Part shown: positions 8,708 through 20,800 of the stretch, piece after piece
Layout: every line of letters begins with the position of its first letter
Position numbering within the stretch: the first letter of the stretch is position 1
Assembly: GCA_027069135.1 (NCBI GenBank)
Contig: JALXFE010000547.1
Span: 1-37,829 of the forward strand
From: Thermoanaerobaculia bacterium
Lineage (GTDB): Bacteria > Acidobacteriota > Thermoanaerobaculia > Multivoradales > JAHZIX01
Direction: 5' to 3'
DNA length: 37,829 nucleotides
Notes under the pieces: generated by a model
What the model was told of the DNA's origin: nothing
The model's input: only the letters and a program-made list of their open reading frames with translations
The model's database searches: none
Made by a program: the position numbers and the translations under genes

Positions 8708-11569
8708 GTGCCGGGAATGACCGTCAGCACCTCGGCAGATCAAGCACCGGACCTTTCGACAGGGATCCTCTTTCCTCACGTCGTGTGCCGAGTCGCGGGC
8801 CTGCCGGTTTCCTGCTTGGAGCCTCTTCGGGCAGAGGAGAGCAGTCAGCTGTGGACGGAGATTCGAGGCCTCATCGGGCAGTTGGAGGGGCAGCGAGATC
8901 GATTGGTGCCCCGGATCTTCGAAGCCATTGGGAGGTTGGATGAGAGCTCCCAACGCCGTCCTCTGCTCAAGCTGAAACGGGATGTTCACAACCTCAGATC
9001 CCTGAGCACGGCGGCGATGGAGGCCGTCACCGCCCCTCGGCTCCGCCGAGATCTCGAGGTGTACCAGCGAGCTCTGGAGAGTCTCGAGGCGGCGCAGCGA
9101 CGATGCTCGCAGGTGTATCAAAGAGAGCTCGTCGCGGTCCGCTCGCGGTTCCAGCGCTTGGTCTTGAACGAGGACTTCCGTCGGGGTCTCCTGCTCTCCA
9201 GCAGGACCCTCGCGGCACAGCTGTCCCGCTACGTTCGGCTGGCCGCGGACCGTCCCGGTGCCAAGGGGCGACAGGTGGAACGCAGCCTCATGCGCTACCT
9301 ATCGCGTATGGTGATGAAGCCGACGCCCTTCGGTACCTTCTGCAGCCTCTTGGCGGGCCGTGTGGAGGAAGGGACACCCGCGGATCTCGGCATCGGCCAC
9401 CGGGCTCCTTCGAGGTTTTCCGGAGACCCCCAGCACAAGACGACCCACCTGCGGCTCAACAAGACCATCTACGGCCGCCTGCTCCCTTTGATGATCGCGC
9501 GGCCGGCGATCCGCCAGGAGCTTCGGGTCGAGCTCAACCCGACGCTTCGCGAAGAAGGGGATCGGTGGGTGTTCCTGGCGGCTGCCGGCGGCGCCGAGGT
9601 TTTCCAGCGATTGCCCCGAAATCCGGTCCTCGACCTCTTGGGTCAGCTCCTGACGAGGGGAGGCCCCAAGGCCCTGGCGGTCCTGATCTCGAGCCTCGGA
9701 TCCCATCCTTCGGTGGAGGCGAGCCCGGAGGAAGCGGAGGCCTTCGCCCTCAAGCTCATCGAGTTGGGCTTCCTGCGCTTCCGGGTCGGAATACCCGAGC
9801 AGGAAGTGGATTGGGATGCACCCCTGCGGGCTGTTCTCGAAGTCGTCGAGGATGAGCATGCGCGGCTCATCCTGCGCTTTCTTACACGATTGCGGGAAGC
9901 TGCCGAGCAGTATGAGGCCGCTGACCTCGATCGGCGCCGCGAGCTTCTCGAAGAGGCCGTGGCCCTGGTGCGAGGGATTTTCGAAGATTTGGGAGCCCCC
10001 ATCGCCGACAACGATCCCGCTCTGGGACAGCTGCCACCGTTCTTCGAGGATTCCGGGGGGGAGGCGCTCCTCCACCTCCAGGCGGCAGGATTCGAGGACG
10101 ATCTCCGGGATTACGTGCGCCGAGCTCTACCCCTCGCCAGTGCCCGGGGCGAGCAGGCGAATATGCGTTGTTTCTTCGATCGCTTCTACGGTGAGCGGGG
10201 GGAGGCCATGGTGCCCCTGCTTCGCTTCTACGAAGACTATTACCGCGAGCATTTCAAGGGTCATCTGGAGCGCCAACGCCCGGCGAAACAGACGGATGCG
10301 CCCACCCCGGCAGAGACGTCGGCAGAGCCCTACGACCTCTCCAATCCTTTCGGTTTGGACCTGATTACCCGGTTCCATCGGTCGAGGGTGTTCCTGGAGC
10401 GGCGAATTCAGGAGCGCTGGGCGGCAGCCTCGGGGGCCGAAGAGATCGAGCTCTCCCCGGGGGACCTGGACGCTGCGACGGCGAAGCTGCCACCGTTGAC
10501 GGATCGTTGCCGTTCGGTTTCGGTATTCGGTCACCTTCTGGAGGATTGGGGGCCGAAGGGGGAGCCGGGCCTGGTCACCGGGCATTGTCTTACGGGTTTC
10601 GGGAAGTATTTCTCGCGCTTTCTTTATCTCTTGCCGGACGAGGTGCAAGAAGCCCTTGTGGCGTCGAATCAGAGTCTTACGGATGAGTTGGTGACCGAAA
10701 TCTGCGGCGATGCGAGCTTCAACGCCAACCTGCACCCACCGCTTCTGCCTTGGGAGATGAGCTACCCGACGGGGGAGAGCGGGACGGCGGAAGAACAGAT
10801 CTTGGTCTCCGAGCTCTGGGTGGAGCCGGTCCCTCTCGATTCCCATCGCCTGCGGCTTCGGCAGGGGCCAAAGGGTCGGGAGGTCGTACCGGTCGATCTG
10901 GGGTTTCTCAATCCGCGGATGAGGCCACCGCTGTTTCAATTGTTGGCTCGGTTCTCGCCAGCGGCCAATTTTTCTTTGCCCTTGCCGGAGTTCTTGCCGT
11001 CGCCCCCCACGACTGCGGGAGCGTCTTCCCAGGTTCGCGTTCAGGTGCGGCCGAGGATCACCTACGGTCGGTTGGTTCTGGCCCGGCGACGATGGAAGGT
11101 CTTTTCCGCGGATCTACCCCGTCGCCTCGGTGCCGAGAGCGAGGCCGAGTTCTTCCTTCGTCTTCAGGAGTGGAGAGAGCAGGTCGGGCTTCCTTTGGAA
11201 GTCTTCGTCAAGGTCCAGGTTCTACCCCAAGGGCCGCCCGAGGAGCCCAAGCCGGAGGGCGAGGAGGAATCCGGGGAAGATGTGTCGAAGGGGAAGCCCC
11301 GGAAACCCCAACCCGAGAAACCCCAGCCCCAGAAATCCCAGCCCCAGATCCGGGAACACCTTTATAAACCCCAATATATCGATTTCTTCAATCCGATTCT
11401 GGCGGATCTCTTTAGCCGTCTGGGGGAGGGCCTTCCCGCCTTCATCGCCGTCTTTGAGGAATGTCTCCCGGCCAAGGGCCATAGGGTTCCGGCAGACGGG
11501 AAAGAGTACGCGACGGAGTTGGTGTTGCAGCTCGATTATCCGGAGAGCTCCGAGGGGGCTGCAAGATGA
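8708..11569 (+). CDS. Lanthipeptide dehydratase, glutamylation domain (split LanB, N-terminal part)
   Basis: The product has 953 residues. In class I lanthipeptide synthesis this domain uses glutamyl-tRNA to esterify Ser and Thr of the precursor. Family features: YLSRMVMKPTPFGTFCSL (about 198-216), LNKTIYGRLLPL, NANLHPPLLPWEM, DLGFLNPRMRPPLFQLLA, and PRITYGRLVLARRRWKVF near the C-terminus. The elimination domain normally fused to it is encoded by the next gene. At 953 residues it is longer than the usual N-terminal part; one addition is a Lys/Pro/Gln-rich insertion (about 855-885) between beta-rich segments. GTG at 8708 has GAGGA 7 bases upstream; an ATG at 8717 is an alternative. The 3' end overlaps the next gene by 4 bases (ATGA). 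Identification is by family motifs; catalytic residues were not mapped individually. Confidence 0.9.
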   Translation: MPGMTVSTSADQAPDLSTGILFPHVVCRVAGLPVSCLEPLRAEESSQLWTEIRGLIGQLEGQRDRLVPRIFEAIGRLDESSQRRPLLKLKRDVHNLRSLSTAAMEAVTAPRLRRDLEVYQRALESLEAAQRRCSQVYQRELVAVRSRFQRLVLNEDFRRGLLLSSRTLAAQLSRYVRLAADRPGAKGRQVERSLMRYLSRMVMKPTPFGTFCSLLAGRVEEGTPADLGIGHRAPSRFSGDPQHKTTHLRLNKTIYGRLLPLMIARPAIRQELRVELNPTLREEGDRWVFLAAAGGAEVFQRLPRNPVLDLLGQLLTRGGPKALAVLISSLGSHPSVEASPEEAEAFALKLIELGFLRFRVGIPEQEVDWDAPLRAVLEVVEDEHARLILRFLTRLREAAEQYEAADLDRRRELLEEAVALVRGIFEDLGAPIADNDPALGQLPPFFEDSGGEALLHLQAAGFEDDLRDYVRRALPLASARGEQANMRCFFDRFYGERGEAMVPLLRFYEDYYREHFKGHLERQRPAKQTDAPTPAETSAEPYDLSNPFGLDLITRFHRSRVFLERRIQERWAAASGAEEIELSPGDLDAATAKLPPLTDRCRSVSVFGHLLEDWGPKGEPGLVTGHCLTGFGKYFSRFLYLLPDEVQEALVASNQSLTDELVTEICGDASFNANLHPPLLPWEMSYPTGESGTAEEQILVSELWVEPVPLDSHRLRLRQGPKGREVVPVDLGFLNPRMRPPLFQLLARFSPAANFSLPLPEFLPSPPTTAGASSQVRVQVRPRITYGRLVLARRRWKVFSADLPRRLGAESEAEFFLRLQEWREQVGLPLEVFVKVQVLPQGPPEEPKPEGEEESGEDVSKGKPRKPQPEKPQPQKSQPQIREHLYKPQYIDFFNPILADLFSRLGEGLPAFIAVFEECLPAKGHRVPADGKEYATELVLQLDYPESSEGAAR

Positions 11570-12510
11570 AGGGAGCTCCCGAGGGCGGGTCCGGCGAGAG
11601 GGGTTGGTTGAGCGCTCACCTACATTTCGAGGGAGATCTCTACGGACCTCCGGCAGACGAGGTCCTGTGGCAGGTCGCGGAGCCCATGGTGCGCTCAGCG
11701 CTCCGGGAGCCTTGTGTGGACCGTTGGTTCTTTCTTCGCTACAACCAGCCTTCGAGCCATCTCCGGCTGCGCTTGGGGCTCACATCTACAGTGCATCTCG
11801 AAGCCGTCCGGGAGAGGATCGAAGCCGTTTTCGAAAGCCATCCGCAGGAATCCGGCAAGGCCGCCGTGACGGACTTGCGATGGGTGCCCTACGAGCCCGA
11901 GTGGGATCGCTACGGCGGGCCTTTCGGAGTCGCGTTGGCGGAGGATCTCTTCCATCGCTCGAGTGAGACGGCCCTCGCGTTGCTGCGCAAGGTGGCCGCG
12001 GACGACCGACCTACTCGGCTGGGCAAAGCCATGCTCGCCATGTTGGTGCTGATTCATGGCTACACACCCCAACGCCGTCGCGCCGCCGCTTTTTCTAGAT
12101 CCTACGGTTACGGCTACTTGCACTCCCTGGTTCCCGATCCCCAAGCTCAACAACGTTGGCTGGCCACCTTCGAGGCGGGCTTCGAACGCCAAGCCGGCGG
12201 ACTTTCGCAGTATCTGGAAGTGGCTTGGGAGGCTTTGGAAGACGGGGAGCCGATGACTCCCGAGCTAGATCTCTACCGAGAACAAATGGTGGCCCACGGG
12301 GCGCGCCTCCAGGCGGCGTGGGAACAGAAAAAGTTGAGCTCGGAGGGAGAGCAGTATCCGAGCTGGGAGGATTGCTTTCACCGAGTCGTCCCCGGCTATC
12401 TCCACATGATGAACAACCGCCTCGGGATCAGTCTTCAGGAAGAGTCCTACCTCTCGGTCCTGATTGACTGGACGCTCCGGCATCCCGAGACGATGAAACA
12501 GTTGATGTAG
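11566..12510 (+). CDS. Lanthipeptide dehydratase, elimination domain (SpaB_C-like, split LanB)
   Basis: The product has 314 residues. It matches the SpaB C-terminal / thiopeptide-type biosynthesis family: WLSAHLHFEGD at the start, then WFFLRYNQPSSHLRLRL (about 46-62), the signature of the domain that removes glutamate from glutamylated Ser/Thr to leave dehydroalanine or dehydrobutyrine. Later come WDRYGG and HMMNNRLGIS, also typical. It should work in trans with the preceding glutamylation protein, and the ATGA overlap with that gene would give equal amounts of both. Split dehydratases are known in some class I systems; as I recall, the pinensin cluster is one. The stop is followed by 72 bases and then the precursor gene. 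Confidence 0.88.
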   Translation: MKGAPEGGSGERGWLSAHLHFEGDLYGPPADEVLWQVAEPMVRSALREPCVDRWFFLRYNQPSSHLRLRLGLTSTVHLEAVRERIEAVFESHPQESGKAAVTDLRWVPYEPEWDRYGGPFGVALAEDLFHRSSETALALLRKVAADDRPTRLGKAMLAMLVLIHGYTPQRRRAAAFSRSYGYGYLHSLVPDPQAQQRWLATFEAGFERQAGGLSQYLEVAWEALEDGEPMTPELDLYREQMVAHGARLQAAWEQKKLSSEGEQYPSWEDCFHRVVPGYLHMMNNRLGISLQEESYLSVLIDWTLRHPETMKQLM

Positions 12511-12520
12511 AACGGTATTT

Positions 12521-12935
12521 CCCGAGGGAGGAGAGCCGATAGAAAGTATTGTTTAACCCCGACTTTTTGAAGGGAGAGATTCATGAAAAAAATGAAGCTC
12601 AGTCTCGATGATTTGAAAGTGGAGTCCTTCCAGACCACGCCGGAGGTTGCTGGCGAAGAAGGAACCGTCGTCGGCTACATCACCTGCGACCTGACCGTTT
12701 GTAACGAATGCGGTCCGGGCTGTGGTTCCACCCGACAGGCCAGCTGCAACGGTACCTGTGCCGCCAGCTGTAATGGCACCTGCGATCCCAGCTGCGGGGG
12801 TACTTGCTCTTCTACCTGCAGCGGTTGCGGTGGCAGCGGCGTGACCTGTTTGGGCTCCTGTAACACGGACTTCGCCTGCTTTATCTGTACGCGTTACCAG
12901 TGCTAGAGATCTGATAGATAGCTCCCTCCCTCGGG
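12521..12935. repeat. 11-base inverted repeat flanking the precursor gene
   Basis: CCCGAGGGAGG (12521-12531) and its exact complement CCTCCCTCGGG (12925-12935) bracket the precursor gene, one arm 52 bases before its start and the other 19 bases after its stop. The arms could pair in the transcript and isolate the small gene's message, or be chance in purine-rich DNA. Confidence 0.35.
12583..12906 (+). CDS. Class I lanthipeptide precursor (LanA-like, Cys-rich, pinensin-like leader)
   Basis: The product has 107 residues; a GAAGGGAGAG ribosome site precedes the ATG. Residues 1-31 form a leader with no Cys: MKKMKLSLDDLKVESFQTT, then EGTV. This resembles the leader of pinensin-like lanthipeptides (L-x-L-D-x-L-x-V-x-S-F-x-T). 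Residues 34-107 form a core with 17 Cys and 19 Ser/Thr, so nearly every dehydrated residue could find a thiol partner. Residues 54-79 are seven consecutive (S/T)-C-x-x units, Cys at 55, 59, 63, 67, 71, 75 and 79. The gene sits between the dehydratase and cyclase genes. The leader cleavage site and ring pattern cannot be read from the sequence; no GG or GA site is present, which fits cleavage by the cluster's subtilisin-like protease, not a C39 peptidase. Confidence 0.88.
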   Translation: MKKMKLSLDDLKVESFQTTPEVAGEEGTVVGYITCDLTVCNECGPGCGSTRQASCNGTCAASCNGTCDPSCGGTCSSTCSGCGGSGVTCLGSCNTDFACFICTRYQC

Positions 12936-12965: not shown

Positions 12966-15023
12966 ATGATACTGAGCCATGATGATGAGCCTCGGGAGTC
13001 AAGTGATTTGAAAGCCTCAGATTGTGTCCATGCGGCGTCTCGGATCGGCCATCGGGTTGCAGAGCAGGCCCGATGGCGAGGAGATCTGTGCACCTGGGAA
13101 ATCAAGGTCCTGGACTCAGGGCCGGGTCTTTCGACGGTAGGGAAGACCGCAGGGCCGGAGCTCTACCAAGGATCCTCGGGGATCTCCTGGTTCCTCGGAG
13201 AGCTTTTCGAGCGGACCGGAGAGGAGCCCTTCCGCCGAGGGGCCACCGGTGGGATTCTTCATGCGTTGGATGAAGCCGAGAATTTGCCGCCGGGGAGCTT
13301 TGGCTTTCATGGCGGAAGGGTCGGTATCGCCTGGGCTGCGGCGCGGCTGGCGAGGCTTCTCGAGAGACCGGAGCTCCTTGTGAGCTCCTGGACGATCCTC
13401 GAACCTCTGCGGGGGTCGGAAGAGCAGGACCAGGGCATTGACGTCATCAGCGGCGCCGCCGGCGCGATTCCAGCTCTTCTCGAGCTGGGAGAGCTGCTCG
13501 AACGGCCAGAGCCTGGGGAGATAGCCCGGGCTCTCGGGGACCGTCTGCTGCTCCTGGCGCAACAGGAGCCGGGTGGGTGGTCCTGGAATACCCTCCCGGG
13601 TACGTCGGTTCGCCATCTCCTGGGACTCGCCCACGGCACGGCGGGTATCGCTCTCGCCCTCCTGGAGTTGGCTCGGGCTACCGGCGAAGGCCGGTTTCTC
13701 TTCGCCGCCCAGATGGCCTTCCTGTACGAGAATCGGTTCTTCGACGAAAGGGTCTCGAATTGGCCGGATCTTCGGGACCAGCGCCTGGGCGAAGAGGTCC
13801 GCAGTGGTCGCCACGAGACCCTTCGGCAAGCGGTCCGAATCGGTTGGATGCCCCGATGTGAGACCCATTTCATGACCGCCTGGTGTCATGGATCACCGGG
13901 CATCGGGCTTTCGAGGCTGCGGGCTTATGAGCTCACGGGGCAGGAGCGCTATCGCCGTGATCTTCGCGCGGCGGTGGACTCGACCCTCGGCTCCATCCGA
14001 GGAGACGAATTACGAGCCGCAAACTTTTCTCTCTGCCACGGCACTGCGGGCAATTGCGAGCTTCCCCTGGCGGCTTGCCAGGTGCTCGGGGATCCTGTGC
14101 TTCGGGAGGCCTGTTTGGAGGCCGCGCAATATGGTTGGGAGACTTTTGGCAAGGATGGGGGGGGCTGGCCCTGCGGTACCCTCACCGGTGAGGCGGATCC
14201 CAGCCTGTTGATCGGTGAGGCGGGGATTGGAACCTACTTCTTACGTCTGGCGGATCCATCCCTGCCGTCACCCCTGTTGTTGCGTCCGAACCTCGCGCGG
14301 ATCGACCGGGAGGGCTTGGGCCCGGAGCTGCCGGGTTTTGAAGAATCCTTGCGGCAGGCGGAGGAGTTTTTTTTCGGCACCACCGCCGGTCTGTGGAGCC
14401 GGCTGCGACCGGATTGGAAGATCCCCCCGGAGCCCGGGGGCGAGGTGCCGCTGGTGGTGCCTCCGGTGGTTCACCGATATCGTGAGATGTGCCGTTTTCT
14501 GGAACACGCTGCCCCGTCGTCCAAGCTCCTGGAGGATGCCTTTCGAGTCGACCAGGAGCGCTATTTGTTGGCCTCGGCGGAATCGGATTTCACCCATGAC
14601 TTCGTCCGTGCCCTGGCGCGCTTTCGTTGGCAGGAGATCGATGTCCGGCAGGTTCGCTTTCGGCTCGCTTTCGGTGCAGCTCTGACCGAGACCCGTTGGG
14701 ATTGGCAGAGTTGGCCCGCCGAGGCCTCGGAGCCGCCAGAGGAGGAAGCCTACTTTCTTCTCCTTCGCCAGAGCGGCCAAGTGAGTGTGCGCCGCGTGGG
14801 GCCCTTCGCCTTTCTCCTGCTGGACTCGGTTCGGGGCCCAGCCCTATATTCTGAGATCCTCGAAGCGGTATCAGAAGCCTTGGAAGGGGCGGCTCCGGAC
14901 CCGGAAGCTTTGGAGGCCCAGGTCTTGCCTCAACTCCAGCAGCTCTATGAGATCGGGGCCTTCGACGTGGTCCTGCCCGAACAGGGCGCAAAAGAGATGG
15001 AAAGAGCAGTGGTCTCCGTATGA
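12966..15023 (+). CDS. LanC-type lanthionine cyclase with C-terminal extension
   Basis: The product has 685 residues. Residues 1 to about 440 form the LanC alpha-barrel that adds Cys thiols to dehydrated residues. Zinc ligands by comparison with NisC: Cys307 (WCHGSPG), Cys357 and His358 (LCHGTAGN). The acid/base residues correspond to Asp159 (DVISGAAG) and His223 (LAHGTAG). NisC-type enzymes end near residue 420; here about 240 further residues follow. Their last 80 (from RRVGPFAFLLLDSV to LQQLYEIGAFDVV) look like the winged-helix fold of PqqD-like RiPP recognition elements, which would bind a leader peptide; this is inference from pattern. The ATG at 12966 is the only in-frame one nearby; its ribosome site is weak. 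The stop overlaps the transporter start (ATGA). Confidence 0.88.
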   Translation: MILSHDDEPRESSDLKASDCVHAASRIGHRVAEQARWRGDLCTWEIKVLDSGPGLSTVGKTAGPELYQGSSGISWFLGELFERTGEEPFRRGATGGILHALDEAENLPPGSFGFHGGRVGIAWAAARLARLLERPELLVSSWTILEPLRGSEEQDQGIDVISGAAGAIPALLELGELLERPEPGEIARALGDRLLLLAQQEPGGWSWNTLPGTSVRHLLGLAHGTAGIALALLELARATGEGRFLFAAQMAFLYENRFFDERVSNWPDLRDQRLGEEVRSGRHETLRQAVRIGWMPRCETHFMTAWCHGSPGIGLSRLRAYELTGQERYRRDLRAAVDSTLGSIRGDELRAANFSLCHGTAGNCELPLAACQVLGDPVLREACLEAAQYGWETFGKDGGGWPCGTLTGEADPSLLIGEAGIGTYFLRLADPSLPSPLLLRPNLARIDREGLGPELPGFEESLRQAEEFFFGTTAGLWSRLRPDWKIPPEPGGEVPLVVPPVVHRYREMCRFLEHAAPSSKLLEDAFRVDQERYLLASAESDFTHDFVRALARFRWQEIDVRQVRFRLAFGAALTETRWDWQSWPAEASEPPEEEAYFLLLRQSGQVSVRRVGPFAFLLLDSVRGPALYSEILEAVSEALEGAAPDPEALEAQVLPQLQQLYEIGAFDVVLPEQGAKEMERAVVSV

Positions 15024-16837
15024 CTCCGTCCCCGCCACAAGAACGAATCCCCACGTTGCGGGAGGCTCTGCGCCAATTCCTCCGGCTGGTGCGACTGATC
15101 CGGCCCTATTGGGGAGATCTGTCCAAAGGGATCGTCCTGGCCCTTGTCCTGGGCTTGATGGGGATGATTCCCCCGCTCTTTACCAAGCTTCTCTTCGACG
15201 AGGTCTATCCGTCCGACAACGTCTCCCTGATGCATGTCTTGGTGGGGGCCATCCTGGCCTTCACCCTGGCCTCGACCCTCCTGGGATTGGTGAGAAGCAT
15301 CTTCTCCCTCTACGTGAGCAGTCGCCTCAACAGCGCGACACGCCTCTTTTTTTTCAATCACCTCCAGCATCTGAGGCTGGGATTTTTCGATCGGCATCGG
15401 GTCGGGGAGATCACCAGCCGGTTCCAGGACGTGGGGAGGGCTTTGGAGTCGATCCACCGGGTCTTCCAAACGATTTTCGTGCAGGGGATCTATCTCTTGC
15501 TGGTGCCTCCCATCCTCTTCGTCTTGGAGTGGCGCCTGGCGTTGGTGGCCTTGGTGAGCCTGCCGCTCTCCGTCCTGGCCACGGCCCTCTCGGGACCGGT
15601 GCTCCGACGCTCCTTTAAACGCAGCTCTGAAGCCTATGCGGATCTGAGTGCCTTCCAGGTGGAAGCGCTCAGCAATATCCGGACCTTCAAGACTATGGGG
15701 CTCGAGCCCTACGTCTACGGGCGAGCCAAGGATCTGGTCGAACATGCCATGGGCCAGCAGCAGCGAGCCGGGCGTCAGGCACAGAGCTTCGGGGCCCTCA
15801 ACGGCCTGCTGCGGGGCTTGAATATGGCGCTCTTCACCTGGTTGGGCTGGACTCTGATTCTCAGTCGCCAGATGACCTTGGGCGAGTTCCTGGCCTTCTC
15901 CGCCTATCTGGCCTATCTTTTCAATCCGCTGTCTCAGCTGGTTGAGCTTTTCTCCGACTTTCAGCAGTCGGCGGTCCATCTGGACCGCATGTTCGAGTAT
16001 CTGGACGAGCCTCCGGAGCAGGATCCGGCCCGGGTCTACGAAGCCCCGCGACCGATACGCCAACGCCTGCGAGGAGAGTTGAGCCTCGAGGGAGTAAGCT
16101 TTTCCTACGTGGCGGGGCAGAAGGTTCTCTGTAGCCTGGACGCGAGGTTCGAGGAGGGTTCCGTGACGGCTCTCGTGGGGGCGAGCGGCTCTGGCAAGAC
16201 GTCTCTCCTACGATTGCTCGCAGGCCTCGAGCGACCGCAGGAAGGGGTCGTTCGGGCCGACGGAAGCTCTCTGACGGTGTTGCCCCTCCACGAGCTACGC
16301 CAGCAGCTCGCCGTGGTCTGGCAGGAGGTCAGCCTGGTACAGGGCACCTTGTGGCAGAACCTCACTCTCGGTGGCTTGGACGCAGACCGCCCGGAAGTGG
16401 ATCGCATCTGCCGCCTGTGTGGTCTGGAATCTGTGCTCCGGGCGCTGCCCCAGGGCTACGAAACGCCGGTGGCGGAATGGGGCTCGAGTCTTTCCGCCGG
16501 CCAACGCCAGCGGGTCGCGCTCGCTCGGGCACTCCTGCGCAAGGCGCCGATCCTGCTGCTGGATGAGGCGACGGCGAATATCGACGTCGCCACCGAGATG
16601 GAAATTCTCCGGGGGATGTTCCAAGAGCTGCGCGGCCGCACGGTAATCTTTGCCACCCACCGCCTGGCGACGGCGGCCCTGGCGGATCAGGTCTGCGTCC
16701 TGGTCGAAGGGCGTCTCGAGGGATTCGGTGGTCACGAAGACCTTTTGGACAGCTGCCCGGCGTATCGGCAAATGCACGGAGCCGCGTCGCCTCCCCGGTT
16801 GGTGAGCGTCGCGGCGGCGGGATCGAAAGAGGGGTGA
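15020..16837 (+). CDS. ABC exporter, fused membrane and ATPase domains (LanT-like)
   Basis: The product has 605 residues. Residues about 20-320 hold six membrane helices of the type 1 exporter fold, with FFDRHRVGEITSRFQD as the usual first intracellular coupling segment. The ATPase domain (about 355-600) has Walker A GASGSGKTS, signature LSAGQRQRVALARAL, Walker B ILLLDEATANID and the switch His in FATHRLAT. There is no N-terminal C39 peptidase, so it should export the modified peptide without cutting the leader; the nearby S8 protease would do that. It starts inside the LanC stop codon and ends overlapping the region upstream of the adaptor gene. Export of the lanthipeptide is inferred from position. 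Confidence 0.9.
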   Translation: MTPSPPQERIPTLREALRQFLRLVRLIRPYWGDLSKGIVLALVLGLMGMIPPLFTKLLFDEVYPSDNVSLMHVLVGAILAFTLASTLLGLVRSIFSLYVSSRLNSATRLFFFNHLQHLRLGFFDRHRVGEITSRFQDVGRALESIHRVFQTIFVQGIYLLLVPPILFVLEWRLALVALVSLPLSVLATALSGPVLRRSFKRSSEAYADLSAFQVEALSNIRTFKTMGLEPYVYGRAKDLVEHAMGQQQRAGRQAQSFGALNGLLRGLNMALFTWLGWTLILSRQMTLGEFLAFSAYLAYLFNPLSQLVELFSDFQQSAVHLDRMFEYLDEPPEQDPARVYEAPRPIRQRLRGELSLEGVSFSYVAGQKVLCSLDARFEEGSVTALVGASGSGKTSLLRLLAGLERPQEGVVRADGSSLTVLPLHELRQQLAVVWQEVSLVQGTLWQNLTLGGLDADRPEVDRICRLCGLESVLRALPQGYETPVAEWGSSLSAGQRQRVALARALLRKAPILLLDEATANIDVATEMEILRGMFQELRGRTVIFATHRLATAALADQVCVLVEGRLEGFGGHEDLLDSCPAYRQMHGAASPPRLVSVAAAGSKEG

Positions 16838-16842
16838 TCTCG

Positions 16843-17358
16843 ATGTTTCGATTGCCCAATCTCATGGAGGAGCGCTCCTGGGGAGCCTGGTTGTCGCACC
16901 ATGTGGGGCTGGTTTTTGTCGGCATGGGCGTTGTTTTGGCGAGCCTCGGGGCTTTGATTCTGGGCCTCGTGGAGCTTGAAATCACGGTGGCCGCACAAGG
17001 GGTCCTGGAGGAGGTGGACGGTGAGTGGATCGCCTCCCTCGAGGTTCCTCGGCTTTCGGAAGCGGAGCTTTCCGTCGGACAGGAGCTCCTGATCCGGTCC
17101 CTGGAGGCCGGTCCCCGGCGGGAGGGGGCACTGCGGGGAACCGTCCGGTCCGTCGGTAGATCGCTCCGGAGGGAAACCGAACCGACCGGGCCGGAATTTG
17201 TGCATTTGACGGTCCTCGTCCATCGCTTGCCGGAGACCGTGGCCCCCTCTGCTGGGAAAAGCCCGGTTGCCGGCCGTTTGGTGATCGGCAAACAATCTGC
17301 AGGCCAGGCGCTGCTGCGGGGTTTTCGCCGCCAAGGGCCGGGAGGGGACGGCCTTTGA
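16843..17358 (+). CDS. Short single-span membrane protein, reduced HlyD-like adaptor
   Basis: The product has 171 residues. One membrane helix (about 20-46, VGLVFVGMGVVLASLGALIL) is followed by a short periplasmic part. The stretch after the helix (ITVAAQGVLEEVDGEWIASLEVP, continuing LSVGQELLIRS) has the pattern of the beta-barrel/lipoyl half-motif of HlyD-type adaptors of ABC exporters, but the long coiled-coil hairpin of that family is absent. It would therefore be a minimal adaptor or a different exporter partner. ATG at 16843 has GAGGGG 8 bases upstream; a GTG at 16834 overlapping the transporter stop is possible. It is coupled to the next gene through a TTGA overlap. Family assignment is tentative. 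Confidence 0.65.
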   Translation: MFRLPNLMEERSWGAWLSHHVGLVFVGMGVVLASLGALILGLVELEITVAAQGVLEEVDGEWIASLEVPRLSEAELSVGQELLIRSLEAGPRREGALRGTVRSVGRSLRRETEPTGPEFVHLTVLVHRLPETVAPSAGKSPVAGRLVIGKQSAGQALLRGFRRQGPGGDGL

Positions 17359-18167
17359 CCGAAACCCCTCTTCCTTCCATCGATAGGCCGGGGTGGCTAC
17401 ACGGGGCGCTCGGCGACGCGACGGGCCGCGGTGTACGCATCGCGGTGATCGATAGTGGCAGGGATCCGCGTTGGAAGGATCGGCGCATCCTGCCGGGCGT
17501 CGGCCTGGCGACTCCCGAACGCCCTTTTGAATTCTTTCGATCCGAGGACGATGCGGACCGCCTGGGGCATGGCACAGCCTGTATCGACGTCATCCTGGGT
17601 CTGGCGCCGGGGGTGGAAATCTTTCCCATCCGAGTGTTCGGAAATCGTCTCGAAACTTCGCCAGACCTTCTCCTGCGGGCTCTCGAAGCTGCTTTGGAAG
17701 CGCAGGCACAGATCGTCAACCTGAGCCTCGGGACGCAGGTACGCAAGGCTCATAATTCTCTTTTCGAGGCCACGAAGGTCACCGATAGCTTCGGCATGCT
17801 GATGGTCGCGGCCTTGCCGGAGCCCTCCGCCCCGAGCTTTCCCGGCTCCTTTCCCCATGTCCTGGGGGTTGCGTCCGGGCGGTTTCCTAATGTCTTCGAC
17901 TATCTCTATCGGCAGGAAGGCCCGGCCGAGTGCATGGCCCCGGGAGAGCGGGAGGTGCGATGGCTGGGCGGGGAGCGTCGCATCTCTGCCGGTTCGAGCC
18001 TCGCCGCCCCCCATATCTCGGCCCTACTGGCCCTTTTCTTGGAGACACACCCAGGAGCGGATCAGGCGGCAGCGCGGGAGTTTTTGGGGCTCTATTCGCT
18101 GGAGAGACGGTTGGGAGTGGAGGCTCCGGTCGTCCCTGGAGCCGCCCCGGGTGGGAACGTTCTTTGA
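17355..18167 (+). CDS. Subtilisin-like (S8) serine protease, probable leader peptidase
   Basis: The product has 270 residues. The S8 triad is visible: Asp33 (IAVIDSG), His72 (GHGTAC) and Ser215 (GSSLAAPH). The strand motif NLSLG (122-126) is also present. There is no signal peptide and no pro-region, so the enzyme should be cytosolic and able to cut the modified precursor's leader, as LanP enzymes do. The oxyanion-hole Asn, normally in a VAAAGN-like motif, appears to be replaced: the equivalent segment reads VAALPE (151-156). The start is TTG at 17355, overlapping the preceding stop (TTGA); no in-frame ATG exists before the catalytic core. It is the last gene of the coupled cluster. Confidence 0.85.
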   Translation: MTETPLPSIDRPGWLHGALGDATGRGVRIAVIDSGRDPRWKDRRILPGVGLATPERPFEFFRSEDDADRLGHGTACIDVILGLAPGVEIFPIRVFGNRLETSPDLLLRALEAALEAQAQIVNLSLGTQVRKAHNSLFEATKVTDSFGMLMVAALPEPSAPSFPGSFPHVLGVASGRFPNVFDYLYRQEGPAECMAPGEREVRWLGGERRISAGSSLAAPHISALLALFLETHPGADQAAAREFLGLYSLERRLGVEAPVVPGAAPGGNVL

Positions 18168-18320
18168 AGACGAGCCGTTCCTCCTCCGAGTAGAAATATG
18201 GTCTGCAGGGAAGAGCCTCGACTCGGGTACTGGGAGTTGGCGATCTGGAGAGTCGCCTTCGGGCCCGCTAGACTCAGCCGAAGGAAATCGCGCTTCCCAG
18301 GCAGGATAAGGATTCCAACT

Positions 18321-19820
18321 ATGAGAACGAATTCGCCCATCATCATCGGTTGCATTGTGGTTTTGGGAATCGGGGGACTCAATGCCCTTGCCGACGAGGC
18401 TCACTCTGTCCCGGACCCGCGAGCTGAGGCCTATCGCCAGTTGGGGCATTGGGAAGTTCCCTCCGATCCCTATATCGCCGTACCCTTGGAGGCCCGCAAG
18501 ACGAGTCCGGCTCGCCTTTGGCGACGAGGGGCTTTCGTCAGCGTTCAAGTCAACGTCGATGGCGACGGCAACAACATCGTCGGAGACGCCGCCAACGAGC
18601 CTTCTATCGCGGTCGATCCCACGAATCCGAACCGGATGGCCATCGGCTGGAGGCAGTTCGATTCCATCGCCAGCAGCTTCCGCCAGGCCGGCTGGGGTTT
18701 CAGCGACGATCGGGGCGCCAGCTGGACCTTTCCCGGATCGATCGAAGCCGGAGTGTTCCGTTCCGACCCGGTTCTCGCCGCAGATTCCCTGGGGAATTTC
18801 TTCTATTACAGCCTTCAAGTTCCCGGCGGCAGCTTCGTCTGTGATTCTTTTCGATCCACCGACGGCGGCGCGACCTGGGATTCCGGGGTTTCCGCCGCAG
18901 GTGGTGACAAGGCCTGGATCGATATCGATCGCAACGGCGGCCTCGCCGACGGGCATATCTACTCCGCTTGGTCGATCAACGCTTCCTGCTGCGGAAGCGA
19001 TGTCTTTTCCCGCTCGGTGGACGGAGGGGCCTCCTTCGAGGCCGCCGTGCCGGTGCAGGAGTCGCCGATCTTCGGCGCTACGGCGGTGGGCCCCGACGGG
19101 GAGGTCTACGTCGTGGGGCGACGGTCGGGAAACTCGTCCCAATTCATCGTTTCCAAGTCCGTCTCGGCCCGGAATCCCGGAGGCACCGCCAGCTTCGAAT
19201 CCGCGGCGCAGGTGGATCTGGGCGGTAACCAGGTGATCGGCGCCGGCCCGAATCCCGGGGGGCTCCTGGGGCAGGCCTGGGTCGTGGTCAATCCCGCTCC
19301 CGGGCCTCGGCGCGGGGAGGTCTACGTCCTCGTTTCAGTCAACCCTCCGGGAACGGATCCGTTGGATGTGCATTTCGTTCGCTCATCCGATGGTGGCGCG
19401 ACCTGGAGCGCTCCGGTCCGAGTCAACGACGATCCTACGGACAACGGCGCCTGGCAATGGTTCGGCACCCTCTCGGTGGCCCCGAACGGACGCCTGGACG
19501 CGGTTTGGAATGACACCCGAGCCGACCCCGGCGGGTTCGATTCGGAGCTCTACTACTCGTTTTCTTCAGACGGCGGGACGACCTGGTCCCCGGGAGTCGC
19601 CGTGAGCCCGGCGTTTGATCCTCACCTCGGCTTTCCACAGCAGCAGAAGCTCGGGGACTATTACCACATGATCTCCGACGACGTCGGCGCCGATCTGGCC
19701 TGGGCCGCGACCTTCAACGGGGAGCAGGACGTCTACTATCTGCGTCTGGGGGCCGGAAGACTGTTCAGCGACGGCTTCGAGTCAGGGGACGTTTCCGCCT
19801 GGTCCGCCGCAGCACCCTGA
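18321..19820 (+). CDS. Secreted Asp-box (BNR) repeat protein with DGFESGD tail
   Basis: The product has 499 residues. ATG at 18321 has AAGGA 8 bases upstream and opens a Sec signal (TNSPIIIGCIVVLGIGGLNALA); an earlier start at 18198 would hide it. At least five Asp-box motifs (S-x-D-x-G-x-[ST]-[WF]) are seen: SDDRGASW, STDGGATW, SVDGGASF, SSDGGATW and SSDGGTTW. They mark the turns of a sialidase-like beta-propeller. The Arg triad and Tyr of true sialidases were not identified, so an enzymatic role is uncertain; binding or a structural role is equally possible. The C-terminus LFSDGFESGDVSAWS matches a tail I know from many secreted proteins of Acidobacteria and some Proteobacteria. It lies 153 bases after the protease gene, with its own ribosome site. 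Confidence 0.85.
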   Translation: MRTNSPIIIGCIVVLGIGGLNALADEAHSVPDPRAEAYRQLGHWEVPSDPYIAVPLEARKTSPARLWRRGAFVSVQVNVDGDGNNIVGDAANEPSIAVDPTNPNRMAIGWRQFDSIASSFRQAGWGFSDDRGASWTFPGSIEAGVFRSDPVLAADSLGNFFYYSLQVPGGSFVCDSFRSTDGGATWDSGVSAAGGDKAWIDIDRNGGLADGHIYSAWSINASCCGSDVFSRSVDGGASFEAAVPVQESPIFGATAVGPDGEVYVVGRRSGNSSQFIVSKSVSARNPGGTASFESAAQVDLGGNQVIGAGPNPGGLLGQAWVVVNPAPGPRRGEVYVLVSVNPPGTDPLDVHFVRSSDGGATWSAPVRVNDDPTDNGAWQWFGTLSVAPNGRLDAVWNDTRADPGGFDSELYYSFSSDGGTTWSPGVAVSPAFDPHLGFPQQQKLGDYYHMISDDVGADLAWAATFNGEQDVYYLRLGAGRLFSDGFESGDVSAWSAAAP

Positions 19821-19860: not shown

Positions 19861-20041
19861 AGCTCCAATCGGGATGCCATGGGCACCTGTCTTCAATGTC
19901 TTCCTACCTCTCTTGGTTCCTCGGGGCTTCTGTGTAGGCATTGTCTGACATCAAGGCCCGTTTTGTCCCGCTAGCATTTCCTCGGAACACTCTGCCAATA
20001 ATGAGGGTTGAACTATGTCAACTTACGAAAGGTGCTCACTT

Positions 20042-20800
20042 ATGTTGAAAAGGATCGCCACTACTCGGGCTGTTCCTGTCGCGCTGATCCTCGCTATCTT
20101 CGCCATCTCCCCGCTGGCGGCTCAGGCCCCGTTGCGTCTGGCGGGGACCGAGGCGCCCGCTACGGAAGGCAGTGCAGACGTCTACCCTGGCACCGTCGCC
20201 GTGCGTTCTTTGGTGGATGGTTACGTGGTCGCGGTGAGCGGGGAGTGGGGCAGCGCAACTCTCCTGCTTCACGCCCCGGGTGTGGTCACTCCGGTGGCAG
20301 AGCTTGACCCGCGGGGAACGTTGCTCGTCCGCGTTGGGGAGTTGGTGGCGGTGCTTCCGGGATCTGGGCAGGTCTTGCGCCTGACGCTACCCACCACAGG
20401 CCCTCAAAGTCTCGCAGCTCCCCTCCATCTGGCCAAGCCGCAGATCGACCGGCTCCATGCTCGCTACGGAACGACCGATCTGCTGGAGGAGGTAAGCCGG
20501 AACGTCATTTCCTATACGCCGGCAGTGGAAGGCCTGAATGTTGACACTCTCCTCGCGGTGGAGGACCTCGAGGCCGCCGTCGCCGCGGCCTTCACGCCAC
20601 CGAGCCCCGCCACGGATCTGCAGACTCTCGTCGCGGGAGCGTTCAACCAAACCCCTCCGGACGACGGTGGTGATGGCTGCTCCTCGAGTTGTTCCGTAAC
20701 TTGCCCACCGACCAACAACCGCTGTACCGCAACCACCGGCGGCACCAGTTGTTGTAGCTGTTCCTGCAGTCGAGGCTCGGCTTCCTGCTCCTGCCGTTAA
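20042..20800 (+). CDS. Secreted protein with a Cys-rich C-terminal tail, unknown family
   Basis: The product has 252 residues with a Sec signal (about 1-28, ending PLAAQA). The ATG at 20042 has GAAAGG 9 bases upstream; an ATG at 20015 would add nine residues. The first 200 residues after the signal have no Cys and contain a beta-rich part (VAVRSLVDGYVVAVSG, then LLVRVGELVAVLPGSG) and a helical part. The last 41 residues hold all ten Cys, many directly after Ser or Thr (SSSC, SVTC, TSCCSCSC, ASCSC). This recalls the precursor core at 12583, but the Sec signal means it should be exported unfolded and could instead bind metals or form disulfides. I do not recognise the family. It follows the lanthipeptide cluster but has a 221-base upstream gap. 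Confidence 0.7.
   Translation: MLKRIATTRAVPVALILAIFAISPLAAQAPLRLAGTEAPATEGSADVYPGTVAVRSLVDGYVVAVSGEWGSATLLLHAPGVVTPVAELDPRGTLLVRVGELVAVLPGSGQVLRLTLPTTGPQSLAAPLHLAKPQIDRLHARYGTTDLLEEVSRNVISYTPAVEGLNVDTLLAVEDLEAAVAAAFTPPSPATDLQTLVAGAFNQTPPDDGGDGCSSSCSVTCPPTNNRCTATTGGTSCCSCSCSRGSASCSCR

What the first reader, a model, noticed from the sequence alone, without database searches (positions are those of the whole stretch)
12583..12906. Lanthipeptide precursor with a seven-unit (S/T)-C-x-x ladder
Seen: 17 Cys and 19 Ser/Thr in the core, with Cys 55-79 spaced exactly every four residues and each preceded by Ser or Thr. Known: class I LanB/LanC enzymes convert Ser/Thr and join them to Cys as (methyl)lanthionine. 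Inference: the regular spacing would allow a repetitive, ladder-like chain of small rings, perhaps a rigid rod, unlike the two to six rings of most known lanthipeptides. It might also present free thiols for metal binding if only partly cyclised. I know of no described product with this pattern, but cannot search for one.
Basis: partly seen in the sequence, partly recalled or inferred. Interest (0 to 1): 0.9.

Follow-up and report, generated by a model that had tools for sequence, protein, structure and literature searches.

The report
Ladder-type pinensin-like lanthipeptide precursor
A bacterial gene cluster encodes a peptide in which a Ser/Thr-Cys pair recurs every four residues seven times (up to ten in relatives), next to the enzymes that normally turn such pairs into thioether rings, so it probably makes a long, unusually ring-dense secreted peptide; the product itself has not been seen.

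Summary
The ORF 12583-12906 encodes 107 aa with 17 Cys and 19 Ser/Thr after the leader; Cys55-79 fall every four residues, each after Ser/Thr. None of 200,000 shuffles of the core gave a run above 5. Within the 24-bp DNA copies, the (S/T)C codons differ only synonymously while the xx codons differ in residue (p=0.009). It sits in a compact operon: split LanB (glutamyl transferase, glutamate lyase), LanA, LanC, ABC exporter, short membrane-fusion protein, S8 protease. The leader matches the pinensin family model just above cut-off (24.3 vs 24 bits). Relatives in the same order have (CGST)n ladders of 8 and 10 units with the same neighbours; shorter ones have 3-4 units. Catalytic residues of the lyase (NisB R784/R786/R826/H961) and LanC zinc ligands are kept. 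Unexpectedly, LanC carries a C-terminal RiPP-recognition-like domain (best match TglI, then PqqD and TbiB1). Verdict: a new ladder variant of pinensin-type class I lanthipeptide precursor with a LanC-RRE fusion. The rod of small rings is untested; the adjacent S/T is probably not the ring partner; i,i+5 overlapping or reversed CxxS/T rings fit the spacing better.

The parts
8708..11569 (+). LanB-N: glutamyl-tRNA dependent Ser/Thr glutamylating part of a split class I dehydratase (953 aa)
   Evidence: Lant_dehydr_N PF04738 E 4.6e-50; PDB relatives 6ec7 and GodF 9jhq; SRMVMKPTPFG motif aligns with MadB R89/R93/T95 region, Lys in place of R93 as in 6ec7/9jhq (PMC12241602)
11566..12510 (+). LanB-C: stand-alone glutamate lyase (elimination) part of the split dehydratase (314 aa)
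   Evidence: Lant_dehydr_C PF14028 E 1.6e-39; R67, R69, R115, H280 = NisB R784, R786, R826, H961 by alignment to 4wd9, invariant in six homologues
12583..12906 (+). LanA: precursor peptide, 107 aa
   Evidence: NF038180 leader_pinensin 24.3 bits, cut-off 24
12583..12675 (+). leader, including LKVESF recognition-like motif and conserved GTVVG
   Evidence: MKK..L.LDD.KVESF.TT...G(T/S)V.G conserved in six same-order precursors and in the G304 paralogues
12742..12819 (+). seven-unit (S/T)C ladder, residues 54-79 (SCNGTCAASCNGTCDPSCGGTCSSTC), built of 24-bp copies
12820..12903 (+). C-terminal cap of the core (TxFxCFxCTxxxC), conserved with P0002 and P0003
   Evidence: alignment A1
12966..15023 (+). 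LanC cyclase (res 1-440, zinc ligands C307, C357, H358) fused to a helical plus RRE-like C-terminal domain (res about 450-685)
   Evidence: LANC_like E 1.2e-48; closest to LanM-type cyclase domains; C-terminal domain: NGO1945_C in 3 of 5 and PqqD in 2 of 5 homologues, TglI-containing 8hi7/8hci, PqqD 5sxy, TbiB1 5v1v by fold
15020..16837 (+). ABC exporter (permease + ATPase, no N-terminal C39 peptidase)
   Evidence: ABC_membrane 37-304 and ABC_tran 373-519 of 605 aa
16834..17358 (+). short membrane-fusion-like protein, 174 aa, one N-terminal hydrophobic stretch; assignment by inspection only
   Evidence: no family match; 4-nt overlaps with neighbours
17355..18167 (+). S8 subtilisin-like protease, probable leader peptidase
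   Evidence: Peptidase_S8 E 5.6e-13, QhpE-like below cut-off (116 vs 165 bits); VIDSG, GHGTA, GSSLAAPH motifs; found in all five related loci L013-L016 and L018

Best explanation
The operon makes a secreted class I lanthipeptide of the pinensin type whose core contains a period-4 (S/T)-C ladder. Steps: (1) the leader is bound by the LanB and, through its fused RRE-like domain, by LanC [inferred from domain content]; (2) LanB-N puts glutamate from glutamyl-tRNA on Ser/Thr and LanB-C removes it, leaving Dha and (Z)-Dhb, anti-elimination being predicted from the kept Arg826 equivalent [inferred from sequence]; (3) LanC adds Cys thiols to them, held on the substrate by its tethered RRE so that many rings can be closed on one long peptide [inferred]; (4) the ABC exporter with the short fusion protein secretes the peptide and the S8 protease removes the leader, perhaps near the conserved GTVxG [inferred]. 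In the ladder the most likely linkage is Ser/Thr(i) to Cys(i+5), giving a run of overlapping rings; reversed Cys(i) to Ser/Thr(i+3) rings are the alternative. The ladder grew by duplication of 24-bp units and is kept by selection on the (S/T)C pairs. The biological role is most likely antagonism of other microbes, by analogy with the antifungal pinensins; this last point is weak.
For: Leader over the NF038180 cut-off, 26.5 bits in the G027 relative. Split LanB, LanA, LanC and S8 syntenic in L013, L014, L015 and L016; ABC exporter in L014, L015, L016 and L018. Lyase catalytic residues kept. LanC zinc ligands invariant, and LanC resembles LanM cyclase domains, the trait reported for pinensin-family LanCs (PMC7268733). 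Ladder non-random, conserved as 8 and 10 units in two relatives and 3-5 units in several others. Within-array codon differences purifying at (S/T)C. RRE-like domain fused to LanC. Ser/Thr at least as many as Cys in 13 of 14 precursors scored.
Against: No product, mass or expression data. The NF038180 match of the window leader is only 0.3 bits above cut-off, and four of the five same-order relatives are below it. The codon test rests on 17 codon differences among three copies of one array. The isolated model of the RRE-like domain has low confidence (mean pLDDT 63), though most blocks of the same region are 80-90 in the full-length model. An i,i+5 overlapping ladder of seven to ten rings has no precedent known to me.
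Confidence: 0.6

Rival explanations
1. Pinensin-type lanthipeptide, but only the flanks of the ladder are cyclised; ladder Cys stay as thiols or disulphides, giving a Cys-rich, possibly metal-binding, repeat.
For: Adjacent (S/T)C offers no canonical ring; period-4 TCxx ladders also occur in secreted-looking proteins with no lanthipeptide genes nearby (L116 Theionarchaea, L091 Bacillota, L137 Clostridiales), so the ladder can have a use without rings.
Against: Every ladder member of the window's order has dedicated LanB/LanC; S/T is kept before Cys, which metal binding alone would not require; x positions carry no His and few acidic residues.
Confidence: 0.25
2. The (S/T)C ladder becomes a tandem string of separate reversed rings, Cys(i) to Dha/Dhb(i+3), i.e. 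beads (C-x-x-S/T)n instead of overlapping rings.
For: Spacing fits a four-residue ring exactly in every unit of all three ladders (C-N-G-T, C-A-A-S, C-G-S-T).
Against: Reversed orientation is uncommon in class I products (own knowledge).
Confidence: 0.2
3. The ladder is a neutral product of repeat slippage in an otherwise ordinary precursor.
For: 24-bp copies are visible in the window and in the G027 relative, so the array grew by duplication.
Against: Residues at (S/T)C never change between the three full copies while xx do (6 syn/0 nonsyn vs 3/8); ladders persist in different families with diverged codons; Cys preceded by S/T above chance in most members without a long ladder.
Confidence: 0.05
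4. Not a lanthipeptide but a thiopeptide- or goadsporin-like RiPP, since the dehydratase pair resembles split thiopeptide/goadsporin dehydratases and TsrE.
For: Best PDB relatives are 6ec7, GodF 9jhq and TsrE 7cww.
Against: A LanC with zinc ligands is in the operon; no azole-forming YcaO among the operon proteins; pyridine synthase model score 35 vs cut-off 325; the core is several times longer than thiopeptide cores (own knowledge).
Confidence: 0.04

Closest known systems
Pinensins / NF038180 pinensin-family lanthipeptides (Chitinophaga pinensis; Walker 2020 family I 17)
   Same: leader motif, split LanB, LanM-related LanC
   Different: core here about 75 residues with 17 Cys and a period-4 ladder; LanC fused to an RRE-like domain; pinensin cores are short (own knowledge)
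Split-LanB glutamyl transferase/lyase pairs (thiopeptide TbtB/TbtC, lanthipeptide SptBa/SptBb, GodF)
   Same: dehydratase halves on separate proteins; Arg826 equivalent indicates the anti type
   Different: here combined with a LanC and no azole or pyridine chemistry; unlike SptBb, not the syn type
TglI / NGO1945 (DUF2063-like) MNIO partner proteins
   Same: helical part plus RRE fold; best structural match of the LanC extension
   Different: here fused to a lanthionine cyclase; no MNIO enzyme among the operon proteins
Freyrasin (ranthipeptide with six Cys-Asp thioethers, PMC8326336)
   Same: concept of many repeated thioether links in one peptide
   Different: radical SAM chemistry, Cys-to-Asp bonds; none of that here
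Tha cluster of coral Thermoanaerobaculia (PMC13083261)
   Same: cysteine-rich lanthipeptide-type precursor
   Different: class II LanM plus GMC oxidoreductase forming thiazoles; no ladder mentioned in the passages read

Membership tests
pinensin-family class I lanthipeptide | pinensin-type leader (NF038180) | tested here: met
   24.3 bits vs cut-off 24; marginal; G027 relative 26.5
pinensin-family class I lanthipeptide | split LanB with separate glutamylation and elimination proteins | tested here: met
   PF04738 and PF14028 on separate overlapping genes
pinensin-family class I lanthipeptide | LanC related to LanM cyclase domains | tested here: met
   TIGR03897 LanM C-terminal part 243.8 bits, LicM2 6st5 best PDB sequence hit
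class I lanthipeptide | elimination-domain catalytic residues (NisB R784, R786, R826, H961) | tested here: met
   R67, R69, R115, H280, invariant
class I lanthipeptide | LanC zinc ligands Cys-Cys-His | tested here: met
   C307, C357, H358 invariant in seven LanCs
class I lanthipeptide | glutamylation-site residues (MadB R89, R93, T95, D128, D308, R483) | tested here: inconclusive
   only the R89/R93/T95 region aligned: R, K, T, with Lys also in 6ec7 and 9jhq
class I lanthipeptide | (methyl)lanthionine in the product | not testable with these tools
   needs expression and mass spectrometry
class II lanthipeptide | LanM dehydratase domain fused to cyclase | tested here: not met
   the LanC protein has no such domain
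thiopeptide | pyridine synthase / YcaO azole enzymes in the cluster | tested here: not met
   TbtD-type model 35 vs 325 bits; no YcaO among the operon proteins
ranthipeptide / sactipeptide | radical SAM thioether synthase in the cluster | tested here: not met
   none among the operon proteins
MNIO-modified RiPP | MNIO (DUF692) enzyme in the cluster | tested here: not met
   none among the operon proteins; only the partner-type domain, fused to LanC

The most novel reading that the evidence does not exclude
The mature peptide is a continuous run of seven to ten or more interlocked (methyl)lanthionine rings, a genetically length-tunable thioether ladder, closed processively by a cyclase tethered to its own leader-recognition domain.
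Probability: 0.3. Interest if true: 0.85.

Novelty: new variant of a known kind. Interest (0 to 1): 0.58.

Why it matters
If the ladder is cyclised, nature has a repeat-encoded, length-variable polycyclic thioether scaffold: relatives with 3-4, 7, 8 and 10 units give a ready series to ask how LanC chooses among equivalent Cys and Ser/Thr, and whether such peptides form rods. The LanC-RRE fusion would, if it binds the leader, explain how a class I cyclase stays on a long substrate and would be a usable engineering tool.

Tried and rejected
So absence of other ladder lanthipeptides outside the phylum is not shown. Viral contigs held no relative; plasmids held only distant LanC/LanM. The promoter scan found nothing above shuffles, and the LanA-LanC gap folds no better than shuffles. 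Sequence search of the LanC extension against PDB found nothing; only folds and Pfam did. Literature searches found no described (S/T)Cxx ladder lanthipeptide; a Carnobacterium 'STCGST' hit is a thiopeptide core. Considered and rejected: BNR protein 18198-19820 and Cys-tail protein 20015-20800 as parts of the cluster, because neither was found near the related clusters.

Full report
Observation. The ORF 12583-12906 reads as described: 107 residues, 17 Cys and 19 Ser/Thr after the leader, and Cys 55, 59, 63, 67, 71, 75 and 79 each four apart and each directly after Ser or Thr. Shuffling the 75-residue core 200,000 times gave at most a run of 5, twice. At DNA level the ladder is made of 24-bp copies. 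Among the three full copies, the (S/T)C codons differ only synonymously (6 to 0) while the xx codons mostly differ in residue (3 to 8), Fisher p = 0.009. The sample is small and its pairs are not independent, but it argues that the pair is what selection keeps.

Neighbourhood. The gene lies in a tight operon, most junctions overlapping by 4 nt: LanB-N 8708-11569, LanB-C 11566-12510, LanA, LanC 12966-15023, ABC exporter 15020-16837 without C39 domain, a short membrane-fusion-like protein, and an S8 protease 17355-18167. The leader passes the NCBIfam pinensin cut-off by 0.3 bits. Split LanB and a LanM-like LanC are the traits reported for pinensin clusters (PMC7268733), and both hold here.

Relatives. 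In the same order but another family, two genomes carry 60-62% identical precursors with long ladders, G027 with ten units and G025 with eight, mostly CGST. Three shorter precursors (G025 second locus, G024, G023) have 3-4 units. LanB-N, LanB-C, LanA, LanC and S8 lie together in L013, L014, L015 and L016; the ABC exporter is present in L014, L015, L016 and L018 but was not found in L013. A genome of another class, G304, carries eight pinensin-leader precursors on separate contigs, with period-4 runs of 1-5 units. In most of these, Cys follows Ser/Thr more often than chance, so the (S/T)C pair is the family's building block and the ladder its extreme form. A six-unit pattern search of 148 genomes of the class and 396 of the phylum found no further ladder lanthipeptide; the other hits inspected were simple repeats.

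Enzymes. Aligning the LanB-C family to NisB (4wd9) places R67, R69, R115 and H280 on NisB R784, R786, R826 and H961, all invariant. Arg826 marks anti-eliminating lyases (PMC9486935), so (Z)-Dhb and ordinary DL-(methyl)lanthionine are predicted. LanB-N is closest to the split dehydratases 6ec7 and GodF. LanC keeps its zinc ligands.

LanC extension. All LanCs of these clusters that could be read to the end have about 230 extra C-terminal residues. Three of five match Pfam NGO1945_C and two match PqqD weakly. The AlphaFold models give a helical part followed by strands and a three-helix bundle, and Foldseek ranks the TglHI structures (8hi7, 8hci) first, then PqqD and the lasso-peptide leader binder TbiB1. 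TglI and NGO1945 are partner proteins with RRE domains for MNIO enzymes (PMC12452194). That the matched chain A (269 residues) is TglI and not TglH is my reading, supported by the PqqD and TbiB1 matches. So the cyclase appears to carry its own leader-recognition module. E-values are modest (about 1e-3 for the best match) and the isolated model has low confidence; the agreement of Pfam, full-length model and domain model is what carries the claim.

Mechanism. Dehydration by LanB-N/LanB-C, cyclisation by RRE-tethered LanC, export by the ABC protein and leader removal by S8 follow from family knowledge; none is shown. Ring topology: in the window ladder the only Ser/Thr near a given Cys are at i-1, i-5 and i+3 (with one extra Ser in the last unit). 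Partial cyclisation with free thiols is not excluded.

Ladders without lanthipeptide genes. The collection scan (truncated) returned secreted-looking proteins with TCxx ladders in a Theionarchaeon (L116), a Bacillota bin (L091) and a Clostridiales bin (L137), none with LanB or LanC in the held DNA. The motif can therefore serve elsewhere without these enzymes, a caution against assuming full cyclisation.

Novelty. The chemistry is that of a known family; the ladder core and the LanC-RRE fusion are new as far as I could search (open-access papers only). I file it as a new variant of pinensin-type class I lanthipeptides.

Noticed in passing
20015-20800: Signal-peptide protein with a Cys-rich C-terminal tail (CSSSCSVTC...SCCSCSCSRGSASCSCR) downstream of the cluster; a paralogue with a similar tail sits at G000:C590:11679-12434 (L266), none elsewhere in the order.
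   Followed up: partly
L116:953-1471, L091:6468-7331, L137:2481-4094: Secreted-looking proteins with long period-4 (S/T)C ladders in a Theionarchaeon, a Bacillota bin and a Clostridiales bin, without lanthipeptide enzymes in the held DNA; function unknown.
   Followed up: partly
L020, L026-L032 (G304): One genome of another class of the phylum carries eight divergent pinensin-leader precursors scattered on separate contigs, suggesting a precursor library.
   Followed up: partly
L184 (G000:C182:10250-11482), G000:C182:90843-91985 and L002 (G000:C552): The window's genome has a second stand-alone LanC, a LanM-like frame and a second LanB on other contigs.
   Followed up: no
L209 (G027:C15:612040-612129, minus strand): A small open frame of repeated SCAY units in the genome that also has the ten-unit ladder precursor; probably a simple repeat.
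   Followed up: no
18198-19820: BNR/Asp-box repeat protein directly downstream of the S8 protease gene, not found at related clusters.
   Followed up: partly
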